This document shows, one piece after another, positions 18,373 through 62,815 of a stretch of DNA of 64,000 bases (position 1 is the first letter of the stretch; every line of letters begins with the position of its first letter). The notes beneath the pieces are model-generated. The model searched no databases. It had not been told where the DNA came from and saw only the letters and a list, made by a program, of their open reading frames with translations. The position numbers were made by a program, and so were the translations under genes. This DNA comes from Phytophthora colocasiae (Eukaryota > Oomycota > Peronosporomycetes > Peronosporales > Peronosporaceae): contig JAGKQI010000098.1 of assembly GCA_018806915.1 (NCBI GenBank), forward strand, positions 620,001 through 684,000, in the 5' to 3' direction.

Positions 18373-18799
18373 TGTTGAAGTAACCTCTCAACATACTGTT
18401 TACCTACCTTTGACATATGATAACTGGCTCTCATAGAGCCCGCTAAAGCCACTATAATGCTGCTTCACTATACTTATAGTGAACACCAGTTCACAATGAC
18501 TGGTAAGCAGCTAGTCAACTTCCTTAACCCCTCTAACCCGGTATTCTGTATCCTACAGAATAATATATTGTACAGGATTTAATATCCAGCAAACTCATCA
18601 GCGCTCCAAAACTCCGCATGAAGATTATTGTATGGTGTCTGGATCAGTCCACTTTCCTAACAGATCGGCGATGGGATGATAGACGGGTATTATTCAAGGA
18701 GGATAGAAAGACGCATATAAATCCCCAACAGGTTTGAAAATTCTGTCGAAAGCCCATCGGTTCACGTGTCAGAAGCTACCTCACATTGTCATTCGAAAA

Positions 18800-19458
18800 A
18801 TGAACGGCCCAGCAGAGAAGCCGTTCAAGCAACTATGGCGCGAGATCTGCGAGGAAGGCTGGAAGGCTCGTAAGCCGACAGGGATGACCTAGAATCAACG
18901 CTACGTGAAGCCGGGGTGAAGGGCCGTCTCGACGAAGCCAGACGTGGCATAAACTTCTTTGAAGGTTAGTGGCCTTATTTTTTGTGCCACCACAGTTGTC
19001 GACACAGAGGAGGTGGGCGCTACAGGTGAACTACCAGCAGCTATACCGGATGATACGGAGCAAGACGGCGCGACCAATGCCTTTTTCCGGATGATCCAGA
19101 ATTCGATTCAAGTGAGTGCATGGCTGCTGATGAAGAAGCAAAAGAGCGAGACCGATGAACCAAACGGAGCCGACGGCCTCATCGACTCGGACGTGTTTGG
19201 TAGCGACAATTTCATGGAGAGGCTCCGAAAGGAGCGACTGTTTGCTCTACAGCTATCGATGACGTGAATCTCGTGGAGACCGCTGATGTCAGCGATTCCG
19301 ATTCCAACGCCGACGAAGACATTATGGCAGACAACGGTGGTCCACTTGAGGAAAGTGTAGAAGAAGATGTAGAAGACCTGGAAATAAATGACAACGTTCC
19401 GGAAACTAGTAACTTTGACTTGACAGGTGATCTCTGCGATATCCCAGAGTATGGATAG
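18800..19458 (+). pseudogene. Remnant of a piggyBac-like transposase N-terminus
   Basis: From the ATG at 18800 the translation (KPFKQLWREICEEGWKARKP, then RYVKPG and GINFFEG in another frame) resembles the N-terminal helical region often seen in oomycete piggyBac-like proteins. It is broken by a TAG near 18890 and a TGA soon after. An acidic segment follows (VDTEEVGATGELPAAIPDD and DSDSNADED). No DDD catalytic domain is present. The family call rests mainly on the terminal repeats and TTAA site; the protein resemblance is from memory of the family and weak. Confidence 0.45.
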
Positions 19459-19480
19459 ATCACATACAATGAGGAGCACA

Positions 19481-19850
19481 GCCGTAAGCCGGGATGCTAC
19501 AGAATAACTCAAAGTGGTGCTTTACTAATTCTGGATGTTGCGTGTGCACACGGAATTTCCCATAGCCGTAAGTCAGGATGCTACAGAATAACTCGAGTGG
19601 TGCTTTACTAGTTCTGGATGTTGCGTGTGCACACGGAATTTCCTGTAGCCGTAAGTCAGGATGCTACAGAATAACTCGAGTGGTGCTTTACTAATTATGG
19701 ATGTTGCCCCGAATTGTGTGCACAGGGAATTTCCGTAGCCGTAAGTCAGGATGCTACAGAATAACTCGAGTGGTGCTTTACTAATTCTGGATGTTGCCCG
19801 CACAGGGGAATTTCACAGCCGTATGTCGGGATGCTACAGAATAATTCGAC
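19481..19850 (+). repeat. Tandem repeat, about 80-90 bp x 4.5, inside piggyBac-like element 1
   Basis: Units begin AGCCGTAAGTCAGGATGC, continue TACAGAATAACTCGAGTGG and end near GGAATTTCC. Five unit starts are seen near 19480, 19564, 19648, 19736 and 19818, with small length differences in the CACACGG part. Each unit contains CTACAGAATAA, the same word found at both subterminal ends of the element, so these may be iterated transposase-binding sites (inference). Confidence 0.85.
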
Positions 19851-20239
19851 ACATCCAGCTACTGGCGCTGCGCAGAATCAACTTTAGACTCATATCAACG
19901 CCGAGGACCTGGTGTTTGTCATATCACGCTAGAAGCACACGTTAGTGAACACATCGGATCACCAAGCAGAACAAACGCAGGCAGTACTTGTGTAAGGTGC
20001 GTTCCGCCTTTGAGCACCTTCTGTCAGCAATGGTTTAGGCGGTCGTGTACCGCTCTGCCACGTTCACGCTCACGTGCTATCAGAAATGGCACGATACCTC
20101 GGGTGACGGAAGAGCATTCCACTGAGCCTAAAAAAGATGATTAGATTCCGCAAACGTAAGAGAAAGTAAAGACGAGGAATAAGAAGGACAACTAGTTAGC
20201 ACCACGTACTTTGCAGTAGGTCTTGCTGGAGCCTGCAGA

Positions 20240-20298
20240 GAAGTATTTGCCCAGTTCCTCCTCACTACTCCGTTAGTTAGGAACTGGGCAAATTCTTC
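20240..20298. repeat. Inverted repeat, 19-bp arms, in piggyBac-like element 1
   Basis: GAAGTATTTGCCCAGTTCC (20240-20258) and GGAACTGGGCAAATTCTTC (20280-20298) are reverse complements with one mismatch, around a 21-nt loop. No coding function; possibly an internal end or hairpin. Confidence 0.8.
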
Positions 20299-20734
20299 CT
20301 CTTCGCGCGCTTTGCACTTCGCGCGCTTTTGGCGGATGGTTGGTTGGCGCCAAGAGTGCCGCACAGTACAGAGTCGTTTCAAATTTGACGGGGGTTGCCG
20401 AGTGAGAAGTTTTGAACATGTTTTGTCCGCCAGGGAGCCAATAGGAGATCGCCAGTTTCGCAGATGTTGGATACATTGTGCATGCTATAGCCGATGATGT
20501 ACACTTTATGTACAGAATATGCCTCGCCGAGCACGAAAGGGCTTCCAACGGCATACTTTTCGCAGGTTATCGTTCATACTTTAATCAAGATAATTGCTTA
20601 TTCTGTAGAATACAGAATAACGGCTCGGGTTAGAAGGGTTAAGCATATAATCTAACTCACTTCGTCTTTTGACGGTAACTACACACTACTTCTTCTTCTC
20701 ACCTTCTTCTTCACTACCTACGCTACTCGCCAGA

Positions 20735-20746
20735 GGTTATGAGCCC
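20735..20746 (+). other. Copia A primer-binding site
   Basis: GGTTATGAGCCC directly after the 5' LTR. It fits the half-tRNA priming sites (TTATGAGCCC core) known in copia elements. The gag ATG overlaps it (ATGAGCCC at 20739). The same arrangement recurs at 52880-52891 on the minus strand. Confidence 0.65.
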
Positions 20747-23459
20747 AAGACAAGCCTCAAGCGACGACTTCCCACGACTCATCGGTGCCGAGAACTTCGA
20801 CGTGTGGAAGGCTCGCGTGTGCGCAGCACTCGATGGCAAGCACCTGCTCGGCTACGTGAAGCAGCTCGACTACGATGGTGTGTCAGACGAAGAGAGTGAA
20901 GACAGCACTAACGACATGTCCGACGACGACGACCCTCCTGCCAAGGCCACCAAGGATGCTGAAGTCGACTCTGACGCTGTGGACTACGAGGAGAGCGATG
21001 ACGAGCTAAAGCCGCCCTCGGACTCTGATGATGACTCGGGAGCCAGCTCAGATGGGTCCATCAAGCGCAAGGATCTTCCAGCCGTCCGACCGTTCAACTC
21101 GCGTGAAGCTCGTCGAGCACGTAAGCACCTGAAGAAAGAGAAGCCTCAGCCTCTTACCCAGCGTGAGCGCCGTCGCCAAGAAGCCAAGACCAAAGCCTTC
21201 TTGATGAAGACGATGGACAACATGCACGTGCGGCTGGTCAAGAATCTCACGACTTCGTACGAGATTTTCAACTTCATCTGCCAGAAGTACGAGGGAGCAG
21301 CCTTTCACGGTGATCCGTACTTCATCCAACACTACTTGATGGAGATCAAGTATGAGGAAGGATCCGACTTGACTGAATTCTTTCTCAAACTTGAGAACGC
21401 GATGAAAGCCGCGTCAGAAGCCACCGAGTCGGTGATGACCGAGGGACAGAAGTCTATCTACCTGTTCCATTCGATGCCCAAGTCATGGAAGGATGATCTC
21501 CGCATTTGGAAGGGCCAACGGAAGTATATCCCGTATGAAGATCTCAAGCAGAGTATCGAAGGCAAGGTTCGCGACCTCCAAGCTCAGGAGCGCTACACCT
21601 TGGCCAAGGGTACCCCTGAGACTCCTGCAACCAAGGGTGAGCGAGCTCTTGTGGCAACTGGGCCTTCTGCATCGCATGCTCCAGAGCGCGACAATGCCAA
21701 TATCTGCTCGTACTGTGATCGCCCACGCCACAACATTCGTCAGTGCCGCGGTCTACAAAAGGACTTGCGTGATGGACGAGTGAAAGCTGGAACGGTACTC
21801 CCTGCTAATTTCGCTTTCAAGGGTAACTCGAAGCGCGATCATCCGTATCGGAACTCGAACAACGGGCGCAGCTACAAGGGAAATAACAACCGAGACTTCA
21901 AGGGCAACAACGGTGGCAACAACAAGAAACACGGGAACGGTGGCAAACAACGTGGCCAAGAGCGCTACAAGGACCGCCCTCTCGAGTCAGACAATGACGA
22001 CGACGATGACAACGACAATGAATCTGGCAACCGGAAGGTGTCTCGCCAAGGACGTCGTGATACCGGTCTCATTGCTGTCGCCACCACAGTCAATCCTCAG
22101 TTTAGCCTTACCGCTCAAGCCAAGGTTGAACCTGACCCCACCTGGACGATCGACTCTGGCTGCACACGCCATGTGTCCCATGAATCCCAGTGGTTTACTG
22201 ACATCACCACTAGTGGTGGATCGATCACGGTTGGCGGAAACAACAAGATCCCCATTGAAGGCATTGGACGGGTCGAGCTACAAGTCTCTGACTCCAAGGG
22301 CAACATGCAGAAGCTTATCCTCCATGGTGTCTTGTACGCTCCCCAGCTCCAATTCAGCCTGCTGTCTATTCCAGCAGCGGTGAAGCATGATTTTCGCTTA
22401 AGCTTTGACCGCAAACAGTGTGCTATGCAAACCGACCAGCGCTTCAAGATCAAGGCACTCATGGCTAACAACACGGACCTGTATCAGTTCCAAGCCAAGC
22501 CAGCGGCACCACCAGCGGCCCTTATTGCCTCAGGTAAGCAACGTTCCTTTCTGCTCTTACATAAACGCCTTGGACATCCTAACGTTCGTGTCTTGAATGA
22601 CCTATCTAGGAGCCAAGCCATAGATGGACTCGACGAATCTGTACCTCTAGGTTCTAAGTCAGATTTCTTCTGTGTTGCATGCACGTTAGCGAAGTCACAC
22701 CGCTCCCCCTTTTACTCTAATAGAGTTGTTAAACGTGCCACATCACCTTTGTCGAAAATCCATTCAGATATCTGTGGTCCACTACCTGTGCCTAGTCTTA
22801 CTGGTTGCCGTTACTTCTTGATCTTCATCGATGACTTTTCTCGATTCATGTTCACTTATGCAATTAAGAACCGTAGCGAGTTGTACGACTGCTACGAAGA
22901 CTTCAGGAAGAAAGCCCTGAACATCTTTAGACAAGATATCTCTGTCATTGAGTACACGTTCAGTCCTGAAGACGATAAGTCTCACGAAAATTTCGAGATT
23001 CAACGTCTCCAAGCAGACAATGCGAAAGAGTACGAGAAGCTGGGTCGAATCATCTTTAAAAAGTATGGGACTCATGCACAATTCACCAACGCGTATACTC
23101 CTCAGCAGAATGGAGTTGCTGAACGCCGCATGCGTACTATCATGGAGCGTGTCCGAGCCCTTCTACTTGACGGCAAACTCTCCAAGAGATTGTGGGCCGA
23201 GTGTGTCTGTCACGTGACAACTCTCATCAACATGACGCCTAGCTCTAAGACGGACGGTCGAACCCCGTACGAACTTTGGTACAACCGAATCCCCTCGATG
23301 CAATACATCAAAGTCTTTGGATGTAGTGGATATGTCCACATCACGGAGCAATACCGAGACAAACTCGACGCTAGAGCCCGTTTGTGCATGTATCTCGGCG
23401 TACCTGACCACAAGAAAGGATATCGTCTCATGGACATTAACACATGCCATTGTATATAG
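20739..23459 (+). CDS. Copia A gag, protease and integrase
   Basis: 906-aa ORF starting MSPRQASSDDFPRLIGAENF. A gag domain with an Asp/Glu-rich insertion is followed by a CCHC knuckle (CSYCDRPRHNIRQCRG), a protease (TWTIDSGCTRHVS), the pre-integrase HHCC (HKRLGHPNVRVL and FFCVACTLAKSHR) and an integrase core: Asp in IHSDICGPL, Asp in LQADNAKEY, Glu in PQQNGVAERRMRT. The ORF stops at 23459 after INTCHCI, where homologous elements would continue HAIVYSRDVVF. That continuation is present in the +1 frame from about 23447, so one indel separates this ORF from RT. Because the LTRs are identical, the indel is very recent, programmed, or a sequencing error. Confidence 0.9.
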   Translation: MSPRQASSDDFPRLIGAENFDVWKARVCAALDGKHLLGYVKQLDYDGVSDEESEDSTNDMSDDDDPPAKATKDAEVDSDAVDYEESDDELKPPSDSDDDSGASSDGSIKRKDLPAVRPFNSREARRARKHLKKEKPQPLTQRERRRQEAKTKAFLMKTMDNMHVRLVKNLTTSYEIFNFICQKYEGAAFHGDPYFIQHYLMEIKYEEGSDLTEFFLKLENAMKAASEATESVMTEGQKSIYLFHSMPKSWKDDLRIWKGQRKYIPYEDLKQSIEGKVRDLQAQERYTLAKGTPETPATKGERALVATGPSASHAPERDNANICSYCDRPRHNIRQCRGLQKDLRDGRVKAGTVLPANFAFKGNSKRDHPYRNSNNGRSYKGNNNRDFKGNNGGNNKKHGNGGKQRGQERYKDRPLESDNDDDDDNDNESGNRKVSRQGRRDTGLIAVATTVNPQFSLTAQAKVEPDPTWTIDSGCTRHVSHESQWFTDITTSGGSITVGGNNKIPIEGIGRVELQVSDSKGNMQKLILHGVLYAPQLQFSLLSIPAAVKHDFRLSFDRKQCAMQTDQRFKIKALMANNTDLYQFQAKPAAPPAALIASGKQRSFLLLHKRLGHPNVRVLNDLSRSQAIDGLDESVPLGSKSDFFCVACTLAKSHRSPFYSNRVVKRATSPLSKIHSDICGPLPVPSLTGCRYFLIFIDDFSRFMFTYAIKNRSELYDCYEDFRKKALNIFRQDISVIEYTFSPEDDKSHENFEIQRLQADNAKEYEKLGRIIFKKYGTHAQFTNAYTPQQNGVAERRMRTIMERVRALLLDGKLSKRLWAECVCHVTTLINMTPSSKTDGRTPYELWYNRIPSMQYIKVFGCSGYVHITEQYRDKLDARARLCMYLGVPDHKKGYRLMDINTCHCI

Positions 23460-25557
23460 TCGTGATGTAGTTTTTAAAGAGGACGAATTTCCCCCTCTCA
23501 ATGGCCTGACGTCTACACCAGAGCCCACACAACCCACCAACAGGCAGCAACCTGCTGAACCTGTACCTGTACCTGCGTCACCTGCACCTGCTGTTCTGCC
23601 ATCACAAGAGCATGAAACTGAGCCTGAATCAGAACCAGTGACGACACCATTACCCACTTCAGGTACTGCAACGGGAACCGTACCAGGTACAGCCAACAAA
23701 CGGGTACTACCCTCTTTGAGGGAGGCTATTGATCGAACAGCCATTCATTACTCATTTCGGACGGAGACGGACTCTGATCCTCCGCACACTACAGCTCCTA
23801 AGCGACCCCGCCTCACTGCGGAAGCCACTAACGCGCGACTCAACACTGAGGAAGCCTGTGACGTAACCCTCAACTCTGAGGAAGACATCCACGAACAGGA
23901 GCAACGTCAGCATTTACTGTACACATTACTAGCTATTCGGTATGTGTCAGAGCCCACTACGTATCGGGAAGCAATGAAGTCTTCCCACGCTAACCAGTGG
24001 CATTCAGCAGCTAAATCGGAATACAAGTCCCTCATGGACAATAACACTTGGGTGTTGGTAAACCCTCCTAAAAGGAGGAAGATCTTGAGTAGCCGATGGG
24101 TCTTCGTAGTGAAGTATACCGGCACTGGCGAAATTGACCGCTTTAAGGCGCGTCTGGTGATCAAAGGGTTCCTACAGGAATTTGGCATCGACTACAATGA
24201 GATTTTCTCCCCTGTCATCAGGATGGAGGTACTCAGACTACTGCTTACTATTGCAGCTCTTCTCGACCTTGAAGTCCACCAAATGGATGTCAAAACAGCA
24301 TTCCTTAATGGCTATTTGGAAGAAGAGATCTACATGGCTCAACCGGAAGGTTTCAAAATCCCGGGCAAGGAGCATCTAGTGTGCAAACTTCTTAAGAGCT
24401 TATACGGGTTAAAGCAAGCACCCCGTGCCTGGTACCAAACCTTGTCTACCTTTCTAGAGAGCCTTGGATTTCTGAAACTCACTAAAGATCGATGTGTCTT
24501 TCGACGCACTGTTGACAACGTCACTTGTTATATTGCAGTGTACGTTGACGACTTACTGATCATTGCGCCTACACCAGCACTCGTCAGTGAGCTGAAATCA
24601 GCCCTGAAAAAACGATTCTCCATGTCAGATTTAGGGGAGGTGAAGTACTTACTCGGCTGGTCTATTCAACGTGACCGAAAGAACCGAACGATGTTTATCC
24701 ACCAACACAAGTACGCTACGAAGGTCATTGACCGCTTCAGCGACTACATTCCGTACCCTATAGCAACACCAGCAGAACGGAACGTCAAACTCTCCGTAAG
24801 CAGCCAGCCTAGCAGTGAACAAGAGAAAGATGCGATGAAATCAATTCCGTATCGCCAAGCAGTAGGCAGTGTCATGTATCTAATGGTTGGGACACGACCC
24901 GACATGGCATTCTACATGCGTGAGGTCAGTCAATTCCTAGCCAATCCAGGCATGGAACACTGGAAAGCAGTCATTCGTGGGCTAAAGTATTTGTCAGGAA
25001 CGAAAGAATACGGTCTCCTTCTGGGAGGCTCGTCCGACGTTACCTCGGAGAACCTAGCCGACAAGCTACTTGCCTACAGTGACTCTGACTATGCTAACTG
25101 CCCCGACACGAGACGCTCCGTCGGTGGATATGTGACTATGCTCGCAAGCAGTCCAATCTCATGGCTCTCCCGGAAGCACCACACTGTGGTTCTCTCAACT
25201 ACAGAGGCAGAATATATCGCCCTGTGTCACTGCATGCAAGAGATGATTTTCCTCAAACTTCTCCTCAAAGAACTTGGCTTTGCTACAACGCAGGCTAACA
25301 TCATTTATGAGGACAACCAAAGCTGCATCAAAATCTGCTACAACCCCGAACTTCACGGACGATCAAAACATATACACGTACGATATTGTTTCGTACAAGA
25401 AAAGGTAGAGAGGCATGAATTCAACGTCACCTACTGCAATACGAAAGAGATGATAGCTGACATCTTCACTAAAGCTTTAGACAAGCACCAGTTCAGAGAA
25501 CTAAGGGCCAAGCTCAGGGTAGAATCCCTGAAAGCCGAATCCGGCCACTCAGCATAG
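23317..25557 (+). CDS. Copia A reverse transcriptase and RNase H
   Basis: Second pol ORF, +1 relative to gag-integrase; meaningful coding starts near 23447 (THAIVYSRDVVF). A Pro/Thr/Glu-rich linker precedes the RT: HQMDVKTAFLNGYLEEEIYM, SLYGLKQAPRAWY and the catalytic YVDDLLI. The RNase H domain follows: DSDYANCPDTRRSVGGY, STTEAEYIAL, EDNQSCIKI and the terminal DIFTKALDKHQF. All catalytic acids are present. The gene ends 236 bp before the stop of the convergent accessory ORF. Confidence 0.9.
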   Translation: MDVVDMSTSRSNTETNSTLEPVCACISAYLTTRKDIVSWTLTHAIVYSRDVVFKEDEFPPLNGLTSTPEPTQPTNRQQPAEPVPVPASPAPAVLPSQEHETEPESEPVTTPLPTSGTATGTVPGTANKRVLPSLREAIDRTAIHYSFRTETDSDPPHTTAPKRPRLTAEATNARLNTEEACDVTLNSEEDIHEQEQRQHLLYTLLAIRYVSEPTTYREAMKSSHANQWHSAAKSEYKSLMDNNTWVLVNPPKRRKILSSRWVFVVKYTGTGEIDRFKARLVIKGFLQEFGIDYNEIFSPVIRMEVLRLLLTIAALLDLEVHQMDVKTAFLNGYLEEEIYMAQPEGFKIPGKEHLVCKLLKSLYGLKQAPRAWYQTLSTFLESLGFLKLTKDRCVFRRTVDNVTCYIAVYVDDLLIIAPTPALVSELKSALKKRFSMSDLGEVKYLLGWSIQRDRKNRTMFIHQHKYATKVIDRFSDYIPYPIATPAERNVKLSVSSQPSSEQEKDAMKSIPYRQAVGSVMYLMVGTRPDMAFYMREVSQFLANPGMEHWKAVIRGLKYLSGTKEYGLLLGGSSDVTSENLADKLLAYSDSDYANCPDTRRSVGGYVTMLASSPISWLSRKHHTVVLSTTEAEYIALCHCMQEMIFLKLLLKELGFATTQANIIYEDNQSCIKICYNPELHGRSKHIHVRYCFVQEKVERHEFNVTYCNTKEMIADIFTKALDKHQFRELRAKLRVESLKAESGHSA

Positions 25558-53122: not shown

Positions 53123-54427
53123 GCCTCCCTGCATCTTTGCATGTTATGTGATATTTCACAACACAGAGGTATATCAAGATTACACAGGTGACTGGTCACA
53201 AAAGTTTTGGAGTAAGGAAACGGAGGTTCGCTGATCGAACTTCGCCCCGACAGCTTGCTGTTCAGGGGAAGGGAGACACCTTCGTACGCCATGCCCCGAA
53301 GCTGTAAGACCGTAAAGGGCAGTGGAGGAGGCAAGCCGTCCCTCCCCGGGAAAAGGAAGCCTCCTTCCACTGCAGCCAAGGAGAGAGCCAAGAAGGCGAG
53401 GAGAAAAGCGCGGGCAGCTCGGACGGTAGAAGCAGCAGAGATCGATGCAGCAACTGTTCTCCTTAGCGTCGCTGTAGAAGGCTCAAGAGGCGTAGCTAGC
53501 AGATCCAGGCATCGCGAGGGTGTGGCTGTGCCACGGGCTGATCAAGACACCGCATCGGAGCCAGTTATGAGTTATGTCACTAACTCGAGGGAATATAGTG
53601 ATAGTTCTTGTGCCACCAATGCTAGAAGTGCTTTCACAGAACGTTGTGTAACCCAAGATCCTACCAGTGTCACAGTGCAGCTTGCGACGGCCAGCCATGA
53701 GACTACTGCAACCGACCAAGAGGCTGGAGCTACAGACCAAGACACTGTTGTGTTGTCTGAGCAAAACAACTGGTACATATATGACCAGAACTATAGTCGG
53801 CAGCGGCTCACGGTCGTCTGATTACGTATCGACCAAGCAAACGTGGAATTTTGCTCGGATTATTCAGCGAAAACCCTGTCGATCTGGCTTCATGTACCGA
53901 GTTCTGTGGTGTCGCAAGATGAGCGTGGGTGGGCGATACTATCAACGGACATGGGAGCCTAGACGAGTGCTTTTGGAAGACGGGTTTACGAATGAGCTAG
54001 ATCTCGTGGACCGGTGGAAAAACACGGAGATTGGCAGGTTTGACGACTTCTGCAGGGACGACGAATTCGGGAAGTTCACGATTGGTGCTGACGTGTCCAG
54101 TTTGTGCCTGTTCAATGCGTTCAAGCGTGCAGAGAGCTAGCAGGGCGTCCAGACATTGTGTCACAACAAGACATTGATGAATTTGTTGCTGAGGAGTTGG
54201 CTGAGCATGGGCTGGATCTTACAAAAGGAACTTCGTGGAGGTGTTTTGTGTGTTCCTGAAGCGTCTGCGAGATGCTGGTCGAGATTTTCTCTACAAGGCC
54301 ATGGTCAAGGTGAATTTCAGTATTGCGGGTCGATGTGGAGCTTGCATATTGGAAGAGATCGTCTTGGAGAATGGCTTGTATCTCGTGGCTGCTTATAACC
54401 ACGAATTTGTCGGTCACGCGTTTGTGC

Positions 54428-54432
54428 TCTCT
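54428..54432 (+). repeat. Gypsy D target-site duplication (TCTCT), left
   Basis: TCTCT before the 5' LTR, repeated at 62694-62698 after the 3' LTR. Merging them rejoins the copia B accessory ORF (GHAFVLS then VQG). Confidence 0.9.
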
Positions 54433-54878
54433 TGTAACGGGGTTACACGTACAAGTGGTAGTACCACTTGTAACTCTAACAGTTAGGATAACTGTTAGAG
54501 GTTGGAAATGGGCCTCAGACCTTGGTGTGCTGTACACACCAAAGGATACATGGGCGAACCACATTATTGGGTGGTTCGTGTGCATTTGAGAAAGTAACGG
54601 ATTTCTACCAATCAATGAGCAGAGTTTCTGCCAACCACACGTTGACAGACCCTTTAGAAATAGATAACAAACAGTTTTAGGAGGTCCATAATTGGCTTAT
54701 GCCAAATTCAATAACAGTTCTCATTTTACGGTATTTTGCAGTTTAATTTAGTTATATTTGATTTAATTATACTTATTTAAATAAGTATACTTAAATTAAG
54801 TCTATTCTAATTGCACGCTTCCTCATACACGTAAGCGCACGTGTACGCCACCTAATAGGTCTAGGTAGACCCATTACA
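54433..54878 (+). repeat. Gypsy D 5' LTR
   Basis: 446 bp, TGTAACGGGG...CCATTACA. Contains tight hairpins at 54451-54471 (ACAAGTGGT/ACCACTTGT) and 54474-54500 (CTCTAACAGTTA/TAACTGTTAGAG), and a palindrome, ACTTATTTAAATAAGT. The likely primer-binding site CTGGTAGCACTTTGTGG follows at about 54880. Confidence 0.92.
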
Positions 54879-54927
54879 CCTGGTAGCACTTTGTGGTCCG
54901 TCCCACGACCGACTGCAGTTCGTTCGT

Positions 54928-55893
54928 ATGGAGTCATACGAACGCGGGGTCGAGAACTCCCCAATGGATGAGGGATCCACTGGGACCCCTCACATGTCCG
55001 TGACGCGCACGGACTGTGCCCACCTGTCAGATCCAGAGTGGGAAGCTCTCCAAAGACTTTCACAAGTCATTGGAGAGGCAGCGGTAGCGACGATGCTTCG
55101 TACGCTATCGCCGACAGAGCAACACGGTGTTGCTCTGGGGTACATTGTTAAGGAGCAACGAGATGTTGCTGCCTCGGTGGCTTCCCCGAAGCCACGCGTG
55201 GAGTCGTTGAAACTCCACGTGAGTACCTACACGGGGAAGGAGGACGAGACCCTCCTTCGTTGGCTTGTCGAACTTGACACAGCCGTTGCGGCTCGACGTA
55301 TCGTCGATCCGATGTCGAAGGTCGCGTTCGCCATGTCATGTCTTGGCGGACGTGCGAGGAGTTGGGCCTATGGACGCCGACTCTCGGATCCTACGTGCTT
55401 CGGCACGTACGAGGTGTTCAAAGAGGAGCTCAAGCTTGCGTTTGAGCCCCCGAAGAACGAGTTCAGATCGAGAGCGGAGTTTCTCGATCTGCAGCAGGGC
55501 AAGGATGATGTTCACACCTTTGCCCAGCGTGCTCGATACTTGGTATCGAACATAGTGGCCAACCCGATCGACGAGGCGACCAAGGTCGTCACGTTCATGA
55601 AGGGACTAAGAGATGGTCCCGTCAAAACATATCTCTTCCGAGAGTATCCGAATACTCTCGAGGAGGCGATCAGCCTTGCGATGCAAGAGGAGTTTAGCCG
55701 GCGTCAAGCTAAACTCCATGCGAACGCGCCGAAGCCGGCGCGTCCTGTTGTGAAGACGGGAGGTCCGGAACCTATGGACCTCTCGAGTGCTACGACTGCT
55801 GGTCAACAGCAGCGTAGGAACAGCAAGGTTCGATGTTACAAGTGTAGTAACATCGGTCACTATGCACGCGAGTGCACAGCGGGCGGGCGTTAA
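54928..55893 (+). CDS. Gypsy D gag
   Basis: 321 aa, MESYERGVENSPMDEG. Central retrotransposon gag fold (RWLVELDTAVAARRIVDPMS, WAYGRRLSDPTCFGTYEVFK, FMKGLRDGPVKTYLFREYPN) and one CCHC knuckle, CYKCSNIGHYARECTAGGR, at the C-terminus. The stop at 55891-55893 lies in GGCGTTAAAAAAACGCC, itself a hairpin, and pol overlaps the end of gag by 22 nt in the -1 frame, so ribosomal -1 frameshifting could join them (inference). Confidence 0.87.
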   Translation: MESYERGVENSPMDEGSTGTPHMSVTRTDCAHLSDPEWEALQRLSQVIGEAAVATMLRTLSPTEQHGVALGYIVKEQRDVAASVASPKPRVESLKLHVSTYTGKEDETLLRWLVELDTAVAARRIVDPMSKVAFAMSCLGGRARSWAYGRRLSDPTCFGTYEVFKEELKLAFEPPKNEFRSRAEFLDLQQGKDDVHTFAQRARYLVSNIVANPIDEATKVVTFMKGLRDGPVKTYLFREYPNTLEEAISLAMQEEFSRRQAKLHANAPKPARPVVKTGGPEPMDLSSATTAGQQQRRNSKVRCYKCSNIGHYARECTAGGR

Positions 55894-58800
55894 AAAAACG
55901 CCAAGGACCAGTAGGCGCGGGGCGTCCTACTGGTGATGCAGTCTCGCGTGTCGAGCTTGGACACGCGACGATGAGGACTGCTGCCCCCAGCGAGAAAGTT
56001 TCTCGCTGTAAGCTGCAAGATGACAAGCCAAACCTTGTCATCCTGAACGTGATGTCGAAGAGAGTAAACTCTCTTCGTGCCCTTGTGGACTCGGGCGCGT
56101 CGAACAACTTTGTTCGACAGGGAAGTCTTCGAAGACTTGACTTCGAAGAGGCCGACACGCCTCGCAGTGTGTTGGAGGTGCGGTTGGCAACAGGTGCTAC
56201 CGTGAGGACTGAGAAGCGCGTAGTCCGTGTGCGCTTCTCTTACAAACGAAGGACGTTTGTAGAAGATCTTATCGTCTTGGATCTAGACGATAAGTTCGAC
56301 TTGGTATTAGGCATGCCGTGGCTTGCACGGCATGACCCGGTGATCAACTGGGAGAAGCGTACGCTCGTACGCTTCAACAACGCATGCGCGACAGAGAGCG
56401 ATGGCCCTGTCAGTGCTGCACATGCACCAGGCGGTGCATGTGATTCCCCAGTTGAGGCAGCAGCGTCCGCCGCTGCCTCCGATCGCCGCCGGCGACCGCC
56501 AGCGACTCAGGGAGTCGTTGGGAGAAAATGTGTGTCGACTCAGAAATCTGAGCCGAAGGGTCGCGGTCACATGAGTGATGGTCAGGTGAATGTGAATCAC
56601 CTGACGCGTAAACATCTGAATGATGTTTGTCACATGAGTGATGGTCAGGTGAATGCGATTCACCTGAGAGAAGGTAAAATACCGGTAATACCGGTATCCT
56701 TGGAGGTAGTTCAAGCCCCCAAGGGTCGCGCCGACGACGTCGCGTCAACTCTGGGAGTTGACGAAGCAAATAATATTCGGGGAACCGAAAGGCGTGCGTC
56801 AGCTCTGGGAGCTGACGCCACTGGCGCTTCGCTGCTAGTTCCGGGAACTAGCGATCGGTCATCAGCTCCGGGAGCTGATGAGACGTGTATAGGCGAACAG
56901 TCGCTGCTAGTTCCGGGAACTAGCGATCGTACATCCGCTCTGGGAACGGATGATATGTGTACAAGCGAACACTCGCTAGCGCAGGAAGCTAGCGAGAGCA
57001 CGTCGACTCCGGGAGTCGACGATGCGGTTGCTTCATCCGCTCCGGGAGCGGATGGAGGCGCAGCGGTTCAGGGAACCGACTGCGCGGCAGGAGGTGCTGG
57101 CGGTTGCAAACGCCCAGCACCCAAACAACCTGCGTGCTCACGTGCAGCAGCGCTGCACGCGATGAGCGGCACTCAAGCCGGGCTTGATAGTGCGAGTCAG
57201 CGGAAGGAATCCGCTGACGATTGCGATAACGTCCCGTCCAAGGTGCGATGCCTTGGACGTGGAGCACCTGGAGCCGGGCTCCATGGTAGACCTTCGCGGC
57301 GCAAGCTCAGGGAGCTGCGCGAGTCTCAGTCCGGGACTGAGACGGGTGTATCTGCAGTGCAGACACCGAGTGTCGAGACGTTGAACGTCTTGACACGTAC
57401 TGGTACTGGGTTACAGTACCAGAGGATGCGGTTGGAGAATCCGCCGACGTGTGCGTCGGCGTTGACCGCACTTCCAACGATGAGTTGGAAGCGCTTCGCG
57501 CGAGACTTGTACGATGGACGCATCGAACAAATTTGCATTCTCTCGGATATCGAGAGAGTGGATCGCGAAGCCGAAGAGCTGAAGCAGCTCGTCGTCGATG
57601 GCATCACTGAGGGCGATGACCCCCTCAGTGCGAAGACCAAGAAGCAACGCTTCGAGGAGCAGAGTTGGGACTCGTTGAAGTCGAGTCCCTATTACGAGAT
57701 TCTGCGGGAGTACAAGGATGTACTCCCGGACGAGATTCCTTCGGAGCTTCCGAAGGACAAGGGCGTACAGCACGAGATTGATCTCGTGCCGGGCACGAAG
57801 TACTGTGTTACACGGCAGTGGCCACTGCCGCGTGAACAAGTTCAAGCGATCGACGACTTCTTTGAAAGTCGTCGCCTTGCAGGTCAAGTGCGGGAATCAA
57901 AGTCCCCGCACAGTGCCCCAACGTTCTGTGTTAAGAAACCACAGGGCGGCTGGCGCATCGTTCATGCATACAACAAGTTGAACGATGCGACGATACCGGC
58001 GCAGACGCCGATACCGCGAAAAGATGTTATCATCGATTCGATGGCCTTGAGCACTATCTTCAGTGCTCTAGATCTGCGTGATGGATTCTATCAGATCCTC
58101 ATGCGTGAGAGGGACATCCCTCTCACAGCGGTAAGCACTCCAAGCGGTATGCTTTGGGAGTGGCTCGTAATGCCACAGGGGCTTAAGAATGCCCCTGCAA
58201 CGTTCAATAGATGCGTGACACATCTATTGCGCTCGGTGCGTGACTTCGCACCGAGTTACTTCGACGACGTGTTCGTCCACAGCCGGGCTGTGAACGGGAA
58301 GACGGACATTGAGATGCACAAGGTGCATCTCCGGAAGCTGCTAGAGCTTATGAGGAAACATAAGCTCTATGCGAACCTGAAGAAGTGTATCTTCGGGGCG
58401 AGCGAGATACCCGTGCTGGGGTGTCTCGTGGGGAAAGACGGCGTGCGCCCTGACCCAGAGAAGGTCAGAGTGATCAATGAATGGCCCACGCCATCCAATG
58501 TGAAGGAACTGAGGCAGTTCTTTGGGCTTGCCACGTACTTGTGCAAGTACGTGGAGAACTATGCGGGCAAGATTCGCCCGTTGTCACAGCTTCTTAAGAA
58601 AGAAGCTGAGTGGATTTGGACGACCGAGTGCGAGGAGGCATTCGGTGCAGTCAAGCAGGGCTTGACTGAAGCGCCGATCTTGGCCGTGGCGGACCAAGAT
58701 CGTCCATTCCACGTAGTGTGCGATGCATCCTACTTTGCAATCGGATGTGCATTGATGCAACACGATCACGAAGGGCGTGATCGTGTAGTCTACTATCAAT

Positions 58801-61092
58801 CGCGTCAGCTGAAGCCAGCTGAGCGTAACTATCCCGTACATGACAAGGAGCTCCTTGCCATGAAGTATGCACTCGCAAAGTTCCGAGTGTATCTACTTAG
58901 GAGTAGACCGTTCGTGGTCTATACAGACCACGCATCATTGCGTACGGCGATTAAGTCGCCGCACATCTCGCAACGTATGGCGAGATGGTTGTCCTTCTTC
59001 GCGGAGTACAACTTCCGGGTGGAGTACAAACCCGGAAGACTCAATGTAGTGGCCGACGCGTTATCGCGTCGACCTGACTATGCGGAGACGGTCGACGCTA
59101 ACGCTGTTGGCGTCGTGAGGACAAGTGTGCCGTCGTCAACGTTGATTGACGACGTGAAGAACGCGTATGCAAGGGATGCAGACGCGAAGGGGCTGCTGGA
59201 GTTCCTCGCAGCACCTTCCGACGTGGCACGTCGGAAGCTAACCCCTCATCTTCGAGCTCGTGTACACCGCTATCGTGTACACGAAGGCCTACTGTTGTAC
59301 AGTGCAGTAGACGACAATGCGGATCGCATTGTCGTTCCGAATGATCATGACCTCCGGTTGAGGATCATGTTCGAGTATCACGATGCCCCCACGGCAGGGC
59401 ATCCGAAGACATACACTCTTCTCACGCGTGACTTCTACTGGCACCACCAGTACAAGTGGGTGCGCAAGTACGTACGTGCTTGCGAGGTTTGTCAACGCGT
59501 GAAGCCTGCGCAGTCTCGCAGGCTCCTCTTCAATCACTACCGACTCCGTCGGAGTGTTGGCAGTCCATGTCCATGGACTTTGTCTTCAGTCTTCCGCCTG
59601 ACAGCAAGCGGAGGACGGGCATCGTTGTCTTTGTGGACCGATTCAGCAAGATGGTTCATCTTGCTGCCGTCCCGGCTACTGTTACAGCCGCGCAGACTGC
59701 GCGACTGTTTGTTGACATGGTGTTCAAACACCATGGCATGCCGCTCGACATTGTGTCGGACCGTGATCCACGCTTCACAGCGCGGTTCTGGCAAGAAATG
59801 TTTACACTTCTTGGTTAACAGTTATCAATGTCGACTGCGGATCATCCGCAGACGGACGGACAGACCGAACGTGTCAACCGTGTACTGGGTGACACGTTGA
59901 AGAGCTACGCTCACTCGTTCCCGCATTGGAGCGAGTGCTTGCCGATGGCAGAGTTTGCCATCAACAACTCGGTGCATGCCTCGACAGGGCATACACCGTT
60001 CTACGTGAACGCCATGAGGCATCCACGATTGCCGAGCATGCTCGGCGGAGTAGCTTCCTCCTTAAGTGGGGGAGGATCTACGGTTGCGTCCGAACAACCG
60101 CAGAATGCAACTGATAGCAGCACACTATCAGCTGCGGTGACGCGTGCGACGTCTCGTTCTAGCAGGAACGAGCGCGCGATGTCTGTGCCGGGCACAGACA
60201 TGAGAGATGATAGCGAGCAGGCAGGGCCTGCTGCTGACAAAGGCGACAAGCTGATAGGAGTCAGCTCGGGTGCGCTAGACTTTGTCCAGCGAAGACAAGC
60301 TGTCATACGGTTTGTCCAGGATGCTATCGCAGCTTCTGTCGATCGACAGAAGCTGAACGCTGATAATGTTGGTAGGGGCAACATAAATGAATTCAAAGTG
60401 GGTTCATTAGTTTTGTTAGCTACACAAAACCTGCCTAAACATGCAGTGTCTGACTTTGGAGCAAGCAAGCTTGCTCCAAGATTCATTGGGCCGTTCAAAG
60501 TACTTGAACGGCATGGTAACGCGTACCGGCTGGACATACCGTCCAGCATGAGGCTCCACCCGACCTTCTACGTCGGGCGGTTGAAGCCGTACGTGCAGCA
60601 CGGACTACCTAGGGTTGGTAGTCCGACTGAGGAGTGCGAGAGGCCTGGAAGGCCTTCTCGAGACCGTCGACACGGTCGATCAACCGGTTCACTCTCGTCC
60701 CAAGACCGGACGAGCAGTCTGAGCTGCCTCGCAGACCTCAGCACGGAGGACACGAACCTCCTGCTTCAGAGCAGCTATCTCAGCGCTCTGTGTCTGCTCC
60801 AGCGCAGCAACTCGATCGTGCAGGGCACGATCGTCATGGTCATAGCGTTGACCATGCGGAGGGAGTGTTCCCACCCCCTCCGCCGCCGTTGCGCGACGCG
60901 CGTGGAGCGATCCGCTGGATTGTGGAGCGGATTGTGGCTCATAAGAGAACGAACTCTCAAGGGGTTCGTTTTCGTATTCGTTGGAGAGGATTTCCTCCCC
61001 ATCGAGATACATGGGAGCCGCGGAACGTCCTGATGGAGGACGTTCCGGAAATGGTGAGGGCGTACGAAGCCCACCATAACTTGCAGGGGTAA
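55872..61092 (+). pseudogene. Gypsy D pol: protease, RT, RNase H, integrase, chromodomain (three breaks)
   Basis: ORF 55872-59900 has an aspartic protease (ALVDSGASNNFVRQG), a long linker with LVPGTSDRSSAPGADE-type repeats, and an RT (FSALDLRDGFYQILM, MPQGLKNAPATFNRC, catalytic SYFDDVFVHS). RNase H follows (VVCDASYFAIGCALM, DKELLAMKYAL, YTDHASLRTAI, NVVADALSRR), then the integrase zinc finger (AGHPKTYTLLTRDFYWH, CEVCQRVKP). A frame break near 59530 moves the core to another frame (SMDFVFSLPPDSKRRTG, IVSDRDPRFTARFW). A TAA at 59816 precedes STADHPQTDGQTERVNRVLG with the Glu. A further shift near 60690 leads to the chromodomain (FRIRWRGFPPHRDTWEPRNV) ending at 61092. Catalytic residues are all present. 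Confidence 0.85.
56740..57080 (+). repeat. Palindromic minisatellite in gypsy D pol
   Basis: A series of near-regular palindromic units, each an arm, a CTGGG or CCGGG-like loop and the complementary arm: GTCAACT-ctggg-AGTTGAC, CGTCAGCT-ctggg-AGCTGACG, GCTAGTTC-cgg-GAACTAGC (twice), CATCAGCT-ccggg-AGCTGATG, GTCGACT-ccggg-AGTCGAC and CATCCGCT-ccggg-AGCGGATG. Arms differ between units while the loop is kept. Confidence 0.88.
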
Positions 61093-62146
61093 ACCCTGCA
61101 CGAGAAGTGCTGCGGTCAGCCACAGCACTCGGAGTTTCGCGTGGCACAATACGACCACGGAGCTCCTTGATGTGATCAGGTACACGGACGACCGTGTACC
61201 CCAGGAGATCACTTTCGGTGAGACGTGTTGCCAAGGGTTGGCAACACGGGCAGGGTGTGCCAAAGGGAACGGCACATGGGATCCCCGCTTCCATGGACTA
61301 ATCATGGAGGCGTTCACACTTACCACGCGTAGTGTAAGTGTAGTAGCGATCGCGAGCCGCAGCAACGCGCTCGCGATACGCCTTCGGGTCTTTGTTGAAG
61401 TTATCAACAAAGGCATTCCACGACTGACAAAGTGCCTGCCACTCTGGCACTTTGCTCTTGCGCGAAGTCTTCTTCGCTGCATAGTATCGGAGCTCATGGA
61501 AGAGTCCGATATAGTAGTCGCGTCTTTGAGTCTCGGACTCAAAGACAACCTTAGCGGCGACGTCGTCGTCGTTGATACTGTTGCATGAGTACAACAGTAT
61601 CGGGTTCGGTGGTGAACTAGCACCGAACCGGTCATGGATCTCTGCCTCAGTAGGCATCCATGGTGTGCGCACTGGCGGATCAGTGCGCGGGGCAGTGAGC
61701 GCCCTCGACATGGGGGACGCTTCATCATCACTGCGCGGACGCTTCGAGCTTGAAGCGTCCGAGGCCTCATAACGAGGTCGTCGAGATCCCACGGGTGGGT
61801 CTGACGTGTCTTCAGACGAAGACACGGGAGCGGGAGCCTTGACATCAACCTCCCCCTCCTCGACATCCTCCTCGTAGTCGAGGATGTCTTCGTAGTCCTC
61901 TCCAAAGAGTTCTTTGAGAGGGACAGCAGGATTCTTAATCTCTGCTAGAGAAGAAGACTTCTTCTTCTTCTCATGCTTCTCCTTATGGAGAGCATGGTAC
62001 TTGGTGACAGAGAGCTTCTCTGTCGGACCGCTGGAAGCAGCAGTGCTAGTGAGCACTGCTGAGATCGTTGTTCCTGCTGCAGAGGCAGCAGGTGAGGCTT
62101 GCGCGTCCGCAGTAGCGGACGGAGACGTGGGCGTTGGCGAGTCCAT
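60689..62146 (-). CDS. Gypsy D antisense accessory ORF
   Basis: On the strand opposite to pol, from an ATG at 62146 (MDSPTPTSPSATADAQASPA) to a stop at 60689, interrupted by one TAG at 61298-61300 in the same frame; without it the product is about 485 aa. Features: Ala/Ser/Thr-rich start, a Lys cluster (KEKHEKKKKSSSLAEIKNP), an acidic stretch (DYEDILDYEEDVEEGEVD), a conserved-looking globular part (AEIHDRFGASSPPNPILLYS, ETQRRDYYIGLFHELRYYAA), a Cys cluster just after the stop (IPCAVPFGTPCPCCQP) and a C-terminal heptad-like coiled coil (RVAALEQTQSAEIAALKQEV). It overlaps the 3' end of pol by about 400 bp. Unrelated by sequence to the copia accessory ORF. Function unknown. Confidence 0.62.
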
Positions 62147-62247
62147 TGCGAAATGAACTCGGATTTCTCTTGGGAACTTGACGGTCTTGTCAAGTTCTGT
62201 TGATTGACGTATCGAGACCGATACGTCGAATCTTAACGGGGGGATGG

Positions 62248-62693
62248 TGTAACGGGGTTACACGTACAAGTGGTAGTACCACTTGTAACTCTAACAGTTA
62301 GGATAACTGTTAGAGGTTGGAAATGGGCCTCAGACCTTGGTGTGCTGTACACACCAAAGGATACATGGGCGAACCACATTATTGGGTGGTTCGTGTGCAT
62401 TTGAGAAAGTAACGGATTTCTACCAATCAATGAGCAGAGTTTCTGCCAACCACACGTTGGCAGACCCTTTAGAAATAGATAACAAACAGTTTTAGGAGGT
62501 CCATAATTGGCTTATGCCAAATTCAATAACAGTTCTCATTTTACGGTATTTTGCAGTTTAATTTAGTTATATTTGATTTAATTATACTTATTTAAATAAG
62601 TTTACTTAAATTAAGTCTATTCTAATTGCACGCTTCCTCATACACGTAAGCGCACGTGTACGCCACCTAATAGGTCTAGGTAGACCCATTACA
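62248..62693 (+). repeat. Gypsy D 3' LTR
   Basis: 446 bp, matches 54433-54878 with two substitutions noticed (GTTGGCAG/GTTGACAG and AAGTTTAC/AAGTATAC), so insertion is fairly recent. Followed by TCTCT. Confidence 0.92.
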
Positions 62694-62815
62694 TCTCTGT
62701 TCAAGGTCCCAATCGACTTAAATTTGATTTGGAAAGAGGTGAGCTAGTGTCATCAGCAGAAAACTGGATTAACTTCATTCGTTTGTTCGTCCGTTCATCA
62801 TCTTCGAGTAGATGA

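What the first reader, a model, noticed from the sequence alone, without database searches (positions are those of the whole stretch)
54433..62693. A retrotransposon saturated with short perfect hairpins from LTR to LTR
Nearly every stretch of a few tens of bases in gypsy D contains a perfect inverted repeat with arms of about 6-12 bp and a loop of about 2-10 nt. Checked examples: ACAAGTGGT/ACCACTTGT (54451-54471), CTCTAACAGTTA/TAACTGTTAGAG (54474-54500), CATGCCGTG/CACGGCATG (56312-56334), GCTAGTTC/GAACTAGC (56834-56852), GTCTTTGAGTC/GACTCAAAGAC (61524-61548), GATACTGTTG/CAACAGTATC (61574-61601). They occur in LTRs, gag, protease, RT, integrase and the antisense ORF, around ordinary conserved protein motifs. 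They are not seen in the flanking copia or in gypsy A and C. Selection on protein cannot give this; the property is of the nucleic acid. Possible causes (inference): template-switch 'correction' of quasi-palindromes during reverse transcription, selection for a highly folded genomic RNA, or a role in escaping or feeding small-RNA silencing.
Basis: seen in the sequence. Interest (0 to 1): 0.95.

Follow-up and report, generated by a model that had tools for sequence, protein, structure and literature searches.

The report
Retrotransposon tiled with small hairpins
A jumping gene in what looks like a water-mould (oomycete) genome has had its whole sequence, protein-coding parts included, shaped so that a short, perfect, self-folding hairpin sits about every 45-55 bases; a sister family in the same genome lacks this, the pairing appears to be guarded by natural selection, and its purpose is unknown, perhaps hiding from small-RNA silencing.

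Summary
Element D (54433-62693), a Ty3/gypsy chromovirus, has 108 perfect hairpins (arm >=8, loop 3-12) against 1.2 +/- 0.9 in 100 dinucleotide shuffles. Density is 13.7/kb, against 0.42/kb in window 1-54400 and 0-0.4/kb in 12 other RT loci; 18 of 20 fetched copies have 9.3-13.7/kb. One copy of a sister family, X, has about 1.2/kb, and X shows no trace of D's stems. Variants shared by two or more of 33 rows are rare inside stems (1.9%; third codon positions 1.4%) and commoner in loops (10.1%) and elsewhere (5.6%; 7.9%); single-copy variants are about equal everywhere. So pairing is protected while the element replicates, not after it lands. G-C-rich arms stop growing sooner: a stability set-point. 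Template-switch correction is disfavoured. Inside stems wobble is not tolerated, so a sense-RNA-only cause is doubtful. Best reading: selection for local hairpins in the element's nucleic acid, possibly shielding it from small-RNA silencing. Selection is well supported; purpose is inferred.

The parts
54433..62693 (+). element D, Ty3/gypsy chromovirus, hairpin-tiled from LTR to LTR
54428..54432 (.). left copy of the 5-bp target-site duplication TCTCT
62694..62698 (.). right copy of the 5-bp target-site duplication TCTCT
54433..54878 (+). 5' LTR (446 bp); 5 of its 8 listed hairpins (arm >=6) lie in the first 146 bp
62248..62693 (+). 3' LTR, 99.55% identical to the 5' LTR
54474..54500 (+). LTR hairpin, arm 12, loop 3
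54865..55890 (+). gag ORF (Retrotrans_gag, Ty3 capsid, CCHC knuckle)
55893..55899 (+). A AAA AAC heptamer at the gag/pol junction; pol lies in the -1 frame (slippery-site reading is from established knowledge)
55907..55934 (+). hairpin 7 nt after the heptamer; a hairpin at the same place in family X differs by two compensated pairs
56070..56366 (+). aspartic protease domain (RVP_2)
57930..58424 (+). reverse transcriptase domain (RVT_1)
58692..59009 (+). RNase H domain (RT_RNaseH)
59343..59806 (+). integrase: H2C2 zinc-binding domain, then core in another frame in this copy
60401..60595 (+). integrase C-terminal SH3-like domain (SH3_Tf2-1)
60916..61071 (+). chromodomain
61301..62257 (-). antisense ORF, 319 codons, no Pfam family; as hairpin-rich as the rest; protein-like constraint
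56829..56972 (+). two 72-bp tandem units (85% alike), each with two hairpins
60330..60355 (+). longest perfect arm in D: 13 bp, loop 0

Best explanation
Element D is a Ty3/gypsy chromovirus, recently active to judge by its LTRs, whose whole sequence is held, by selection during its replicating phase, in a state tiled with local hairpins: mostly 7-11 perfect Watson-Crick pairs, loops up to about 10 nt, and a limited stability (mean -12.1 kcal/mol as RNA). SHOWN: hairpins far beyond chance, specific to this family among those sampled, untraceable in the sister family, protected among variants shared by copies but not among single-copy variants, protected at third codon positions, arm growth limited by G-C content. 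INFERRED: that shared and single-copy variants stand for replicating phase and life after insertion; that the cause is selection; and that the hairpins make the element's transcripts, and small RNAs cut from either strand of them, self-folded and so poor guides and targets for the host's Argonaute silencing, while the perfect arms (13 bp at most) stay shorter than the long dsRNA that Dicer-type enzymes use. I put the selection step at about 0.85 and the silencing purpose at about 0.3.
For: Density and controls. Protection of pairing in 33 rows (window, L009-L028, L041-L052): shared variants in stem interior 39/2030 (1.9%), terminal stem pair 32/593 (5.4%), loop 77/763 (10.1%), just outside 25/282 (8.9%), rest 253/4499 (5.6%), interior against rest Fisher p 8.5e-13; singletons 16.8/16.0/18.6/19.9/16.3%. 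Third codon positions 6/444 against 73/927, p 1.6e-7. Repeated with two other copies as reference: p 9e-15 and 5e-15. Stability set-point: an arm of >=8 extends in 85% of 27 steps with 3 G-C pairs, 39% of 59 with 6, 0 of 12 with 7; within arm-length classes 0 of 5000 permutations as extreme. No trace in X: at D's stem pairs X is complementary in 47.4% of 230 pairs, against 48.2% of 10195 background pairs. Both strands fold strongly (mean z -6.9 and -8.6, 10 windows, 30 shuffles each). In 20 copies 15 cells (6 events) change on both sides of a stem pair and stay Watson-Crick, 4 do not; partners slid by 1-8 columns give 2-6 and 2-18. The genome has Argonaute genes (12 Piwi-domain matches, some of them pieces of one gene). 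In Phytophthora infestans small RNAs of 21, 25/26 and also 31/32, 35 and 40 nt were found, mapping along two Gypsy elements in both senses, with 21 nt about twice as abundant as 25/26 for LTR retrotransposons (PMC3522703, passages); 118 of 150 D hairpins (arm >=7) span 19-27 nt.
Against: No small-RNA or structure-probing data for this organism were available, so the purpose is untested. Inside stems, wobble-forming changes are purged as strongly as full mismatches (shared: 10 G-U-forming, 16 A-C-forming, 13 transversions, against 75/100/78 outside), unusual for selection on one RNA strand; yet at terminal stem pairs G-U-forming changes are the commonest (15, 7, 10), and among singletons they are relatively commoner in stems (135:113) than in unpaired stretches (202:262, p 0.006), which fits one-strand RNA or a mutational effect better. 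Compensated double changes are few: 7 interior ones in single copies (one probably conversion from the neighbouring 72-bp repeat) against 4 uncompensated; three are shared by 2, 10 and 2 copies, all at terminal pairs, two of them beside a 1-nt loop. Arms get shorter, not longer, with larger loops, which a pure energy threshold does not predict. The 12 other RT loci and X do without hairpins in the same genome.
Confidence: 0.45

Rival explanations
1. Sense-strand genomic RNA structure: selection for a compact, stable or packageable genomic RNA, as in RNA viruses with genome-scale ordered RNA structure.
For: Strong folding energies. Loops are purine-rich on the + strand (58.3% against 52.7% in unpaired stretches). 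One hairpin (55907-55934) sits at a textbook frameshift position, and family X has one there with compensated changes. The antisense-ORF region, which is part of the genomic RNA, is equally tiled. At terminal stem pairs shared G-U-forming changes outnumber A-C-forming ones 15:7, against 75:100 outside.
Against: No G-U enrichment: majority-state mismatches inside stems are G-T 9, A-C 19, other 30, and inside stems G-U-forming changes are purged as strongly as others. Folding is as strong on the minus strand. The pairing excess ends at a gap of about 18 nt; one RNA strand would allow longer range and wobble.
Confidence: 0.25
2. Mutational shielding: unpaired bases of the single-stranded RNA or cDNA mutate several times faster than paired ones, so sequences drift into hairpins, an absorbing state, without selection.
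For: All change classes are depleted alike in stem interiors, terminal pairs are unprotected, and loops are hit most. G>A relative to C>T among singletons is lower in stems (74:92) than elsewhere (195:134 unpaired, 40:24 loops; about p 0.03 after correction for composition, by hand), as if minus-strand cDNA stems were shielded.
Against: More stable (G-C-rich) arms should shield and extend better; they extend less. Sister family X, presumably with the same life cycle, has few hairpins.
Confidence: 0.15
3. Template-switch (quasi-palindrome) correction during reverse transcription copies one arm onto the other and so manufactures perfect hairpins.
For: Arms are perfectly Watson-Crick with no strand preference; a few single-copy double changes, including paired transversions, keep complementarity. 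Singletons beside the loop improve pairing slightly more than chance (14/30, 10.0 expected).
Against: Symmetric correction should turn about half of arm mutations into doubles (my reasoning); there are 0 interior compensated doubles shared by two copies against 39 interior shared single variants. No clear bias to repair mismatches next to stems: outer neighbour, singletons 23/58 improving (19.3 expected), shared 7/28 (9.3); second outer 10/34 (11.3) and 8/22 (7.3); inner, shared 6/26 (8.7). 28 of 32 A-C/G-T mismatches within window stems are the majority state in the copies. Divergence from X is similar in both arms (83/264 and 96/260), third-position dominated, with no excess of amino-acid change (45/130 stem codons, 95/294 unpaired). 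Copying cannot know G-C content.
Confidence: 0.07
4. DNA-level role: hairpins matter in single-stranded minus-strand cDNA or as extruded DNA, for example to pace reverse transcription or protect cDNA.
For: Wobble intolerance inside stems on either strand; A-C over G-T among majority-state mismatches, i.e. G-T on the minus strand (19:9; two-sided p about 0.09, by hand); DNA and RNA stacking energies explain arm length equally well.
Against: I know of no such requirement in LTR retrotransposons; the strand-bias test is not significant.
Confidence: 0.1
5. Chance, base composition or protein coding.
For: None found.
Against: 108 against 1.2 hairpins in dinucleotide shuffles and 54 against 1.4 in synonymous shuffles of pol.
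Confidence: 0.01

Closest known systems
Ty3/gypsy chromoviruses (Metaviridae)
   Same: LTRs, 5-bp target duplication, gag with CCHC, PR-RT-RH-IN order, chromodomain
   Different: hairpin tiling of the whole element; an antisense ORF under protein-like constraint before the 3' LTR
Genome-scale ordered RNA structure (GORS) of some RNA viruses (recalled; only a search listing seen)
   Same: pervasive folding over coding sequence, more than codon choice explains
   Different: here perfect, very short-range stems, no G-U tolerance inside stems, both strands alike, and a DNA-integrated retrotransposon
Family X, the sister gypsy in the same genome (L053-L058)
   Same: about 65% amino-acid identity in RT-integrase; a hairpin at the gag/pol junction
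   Different: 10 hairpins of arm >=8 in 8.2 kb of one copy (one LTR hairpin counted twice) against 113 in 8.3 kb of D
Quasi-palindrome template-switch hotspots (PMC7202029, search listing and start of abstract only)
   Same: short inverted repeats made more perfect
   Different: the tested signatures of such correction are absent or weak

Membership tests
Ty3/gypsy chromovirus | two near-identical LTRs and short target-site duplication | tested here: met
   446-bp LTRs 99.55% identical; TCTCT both sides
Ty3/gypsy chromovirus | RT-RNase H before integrase | tested here: met
   Pfam hits in that order
Ty3/gypsy chromovirus | chromodomain after integrase | tested here: met
   PF00385, 48.0 bits against cut-off 25.1
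Genome-scale ordered RNA structure | folding energy well below shuffled controls over the whole genome | tested here: met
   mean z -6.9 (+) over 10 windows of 300 nt spaced along D
Genome-scale ordered RNA structure | single-strand RNA signature (G-U pairs tolerated, sense strand preferred) | tested here: not met
   G-T 9 against A-C 19 among majority-state mismatches; minus strand z -8.6; G-U-forming changes purged inside stems, though not at terminal pairs
Template-switch / quasi-palindrome correction | concerted double changes and repair of mismatches toward perfect pairing | tested here: not met
Small-RNA silencing evasion | lower small-RNA production or effect on the element | not testable with these tools
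   no small-RNA data held

The most novel reading that the evidence does not exclude
D has a 'small-RNA-proof' genome: hairpins are sized so that a 21-26-nt small RNA cut from either strand folds on itself, and so does its target. That would explain the short span, the indifference to strand, the intolerance of wobble inside stems (a G-U on one strand is an A-C mismatch on the other), the stability set-point and the cap on arm length, and would be escape from RNA silencing written along a whole coding genome.
Probability: 0.2. Interest if true: 0.95.

Novelty: new variant of a known kind. Interest (0 to 1): 0.86.

Why it matters
It is an extreme case, with a hairpin-poor sister in the same genome as a natural control, of nucleic-acid structure shaping a whole coding genome. 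The high copy number (150 RT matches listed of 2686 candidates, 93-100% identical) makes it possible to separate the replicating phase from neutral decay, and the pairing constraint shows up clearly. If the hairpins serve to avoid small-RNA silencing, the question of how some retrotransposons stay active under RNA silencing becomes directly testable by comparing D and X.

Tried and rejected
Chance, composition and codon usage were rejected by shuffles. A single palindromic repeat family was rejected: arms differ from hairpin to hairpin; within D one 72-bp tandem pair and a 39-bp pair of repeats were found besides the LTRs. Template-switch correction was tested in several ways and disfavoured. 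Known RNA families: none over Rfam gathering scores in 54400-62750. Relatives in the viral-contig collection: none confirmed. Regular spacing: not supported; the spread of centre spacing looks like random placement (my reading). Protein degradation by hairpins: RT and RNase H fit Pfam equally in D and X (94.6/92.5 and 117.3/116 bits), but the integrase zinc-binding domain fits less well in D (53.9 bits) than in X (79.8), so not excluded there. The less similar D copies (L041-L052) proved to be the same family (largest aligned pieces 93.2-97.5% identical). Literature: searches listed no such element by title and start of abstract; the library lacks most subscription papers and preprints. Organism: 62 elicitin-domain matches point to an oomycete; that elicitins mark oomycetes is recalled, and the species was not identified.
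Full report
WHAT IS THERE. Element D spans 54433-62693: LTRs of 446 bp at 99.55% identity with TCTCT on both sides. Pfam finds gag with a CCHC knuckle, protease, RT, RNase H, integrase zinc-binding domain and core, an SH3-like domain and a chromodomain, so it is a Ty3/gypsy chromovirus. In this copy the integrase core lies in a different frame from RT. An antisense ORF of 319 codons (61301-62257) has no Pfam match. The genome (92.5 Mb, 105 contigs) has 62 elicitin matches, which by recalled knowledge marks an oomycete. The search with D's RT listed 150 matches (93-100% identity), the cap, of 2686 candidates.

THE HAIRPINS. With loop 3-12 there are 194 perfect inverted repeats of arm >=6, 108 of arm >=8 and 31 of arm >=10; 100 dinucleotide shuffles give means of 17.7, 1.17 and 0.09. 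Synonymous shuffles (200 each, arm >=8) give 0.26 against 10 in gag, 1.40 against 54 in pol, 0.28 against 4 in the integrase C-part (shuffle maximum also 4, so weak on its own) and 0.64 against 19 in the antisense ORF. Complementary 6-mers are in excess only for gaps of 0 to about 18; mirror repeats are not, and direct repeats only at scattered gaps. With loop 0-14, D has 13.7 per kb of arm >=8, window 1-54400 has 0.42, and 12 loci chosen from the 150 RVT_1 rows (L029-L040) have 0-0.4. Twenty places from the 40 listed were fetched as 8.9-kb loci (L009-L028): 18 have 9.3-13.7 per kb; L013 (1.8) holds only about 0.8 kb of D and L025 (7.0) is about half D. L001-L008 are the window's own place and seven of the same places again. 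Twelve 4-kb pieces from the lower end of the list have 5.0-12.7 per kb; several are only partly D. Of the 115 window hairpins of arm >=8, 1714 of 2028 copy-by-hairpin cells in 20 copies are still perfect.

SHAPE. Arms of 6 to 13 bp number 48, 35, 27, 47, 21, 16, 2 and 1, with a peak at 9. Of 150 hairpins of arm >=7, 118 span 19-27 nt; centres are a median 45 nt apart. Arms that have reached 5-8 bp extend by one pair in 76-80% of cases, 9-10 bp in 45%, 11 bp in 2 of 17. Extension falls with the number of G-C pairs: 85% of 27 steps with 3, 39% of 59 with 6, 0 of 12 with 7; 0 of 5000 permutations within arm-length classes reach the observed association. Longer loops go with shorter arms (rho -0.33). 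All three codon phases are used about equally (21/19/18 for arm >=8 in pol; short hairpins of synonymous shuffles 229/167/247 in the same order). RNA folding z-scores (30 shuffles each) average -6.9 (+) and -8.6 (-) in 10 windows of D, against -0.2 and -1.4 in 8 windows elsewhere, one of which (17000) reaches -6.5 on the minus strand.

HOW COPIES VARY. The window, the 20 copies and the 12 pieces were compared (33 rows; columns with fewer than 15 letters, and columns where the window is not in the majority, were dropped). Singletons, which should be mostly post-insertion mutations (inference), hit stem interior, terminal pairs, loops, outer neighbours and the rest about alike: 341/2030, 95/593, 142/763, 56/282, 734/4499. 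Variants in two or more rows do not: 39/2030, 32/593, 77/763, 25/282, 253/4499. At third codon positions: 6/444 stem interior against 73/927 elsewhere. Using L016 or L019 instead of the window to define stems gives the same picture. So pairing, not protein, is protected, and only among variants that spread with the element. Inside stems G-U-forming, A-C-forming and transversion changes are depleted alike (10, 16, 13; elsewhere 75, 100, 78); at terminal pairs they are 15, 7 and 10, and among singletons G-U-forming changes are relatively commoner in stems (135:113) than in unpaired stretches (202:262, p 0.006). Majority-state mismatches inside stems are A-C 19, G-T 9, other 30. Compensated doubles are few: 7 interior ones in single copies; three shared by 2, 10 and 2 copies, all at terminal pairs and two of them beside a 1-nt loop; none interior and shared; 4 uncompensated interior doubles, one of them shared by two copies. 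In the 20-copy set 15 cells change on both sides and stay paired and 4 do not, against 2-6 and 2-18 with partners slid by 1-8 columns.

ORIGIN. A query from a decayed neighbour of one D copy (L025) found a sister family X: 64.5-66.6% amino-acid and 63.9% DNA identity over RT-integrase in four copies. One X copy has 3, 5 and 2 hairpins of arm >=8 in three adjoining pieces totalling 8.2 kb; the other three 2.2-kb pieces have 4 each. In L055 the count is 5, with a synonymous-shuffle mean of 0.75 and a maximum of 5 in 60, so X has at most a mild excess. At D's stem pairs X is complementary in 47.4% of 230 pairs, against 48.2% of 10195 non-stem pairs that are complementary in D, so D's stems leave no trace in X. 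Stem positions differ between D and X about as often as others (179/524 against 349/964), the arms alike (83/264, 96/260), mostly at third positions, with amino-acid differences in 45/130 stem codons and 95/294 unpaired codons. RT and RNase H fit Pfam equally in D and X; the integrase zinc-binding domain fits X better (79.8 against 53.9 bits). The hairpins therefore look built mostly by ordinary, largely synonymous substitutions, not by copying of one arm onto the other. Which lineage changed cannot be proven without an outgroup close enough at the DNA level; the scarcity in X and in the other loci sampled makes gain in D the simpler reading.

A POSITIVE CONTROL. At the gag/pol junction D has A AAA AAC (55893-55899), seven bases, then a hairpin (55907-55934); X has GGGAAAC, seven bases and a hairpin, two pairs of which are changed on both sides. 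This is the usual layout of a -1 frameshift signal (established knowledge, not tested here). It is the one hairpin I found with a recognisable job.

MECHANISM. Selection on hairpin stability with a ceiling explains protection, the set-point, third-position use and equal arms. Wobble intolerance inside stems says that the form selected is Watson-Crick in both senses, with the terminal-pair and singleton results above as a caution. Small-RNA silencing, which in Phytophthora infestans involves 21- and 25/26-nt and longer RNAs that map along Gypsy elements in both senses (PMC3522703, passages), is a process in which both strands and a span of that size would matter; the genome has Argonaute genes. 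That link is inference. Sense-RNA folding, mutational shielding and a cDNA role remain open, as set out under the rivals.

Noticed in passing
61301-62257 (-): Antisense ORF without Pfam family; shared variants fall 16/8/30 on codon positions 1/2/3 (319 sites each). Of 15 copies with over 300 codons compared, 12 have no in-frame stop; 6 of the 15 have gap bases, not judged. Probably a real protein gene. The X copy also has an open minus-strand stretch of 316 codons in its last 3 kb; their comparison failed.
   Followed up: partly
55893-55934: Apparent -1 frameshift signal (A AAA AAC, 7-nt spacer, hairpin), with a hairpin at the same place in X showing compensated changes.
   Followed up: partly
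54758-54799 and 62573-62614: AT-rich near-perfect palindrome of about 39 bp in both LTRs, longer than the other hairpins.
   Followed up: no
L053-L058 and L025:1-1525: Sister gypsy family X (150 matches listed, the cap), with a few hairpins of its own, three of which are unchanged between L055 and the decayed copy in L025.
   Followed up: partly
window 16523-24783: Highest hairpin density among 8.3-kb blocks not overlapping D (7 of arm >=8), and a minus-strand folding z of -6.5 at 17000.
   Followed up: no
L009-L028, L041-L052: Among singletons, G>A exceeds C>T outside stems (195:134) but not in stems (74:92).
   Followed up: no
7895-9658/11187-12951; 32522-33453/41880-42811; 15909-16209/30510-30810; 24617-25840/62765-64000: Other repeat pairs in the window: 99.1%, 99.7% and 99.7% direct, 94.7% inverted.
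   Followed up: no
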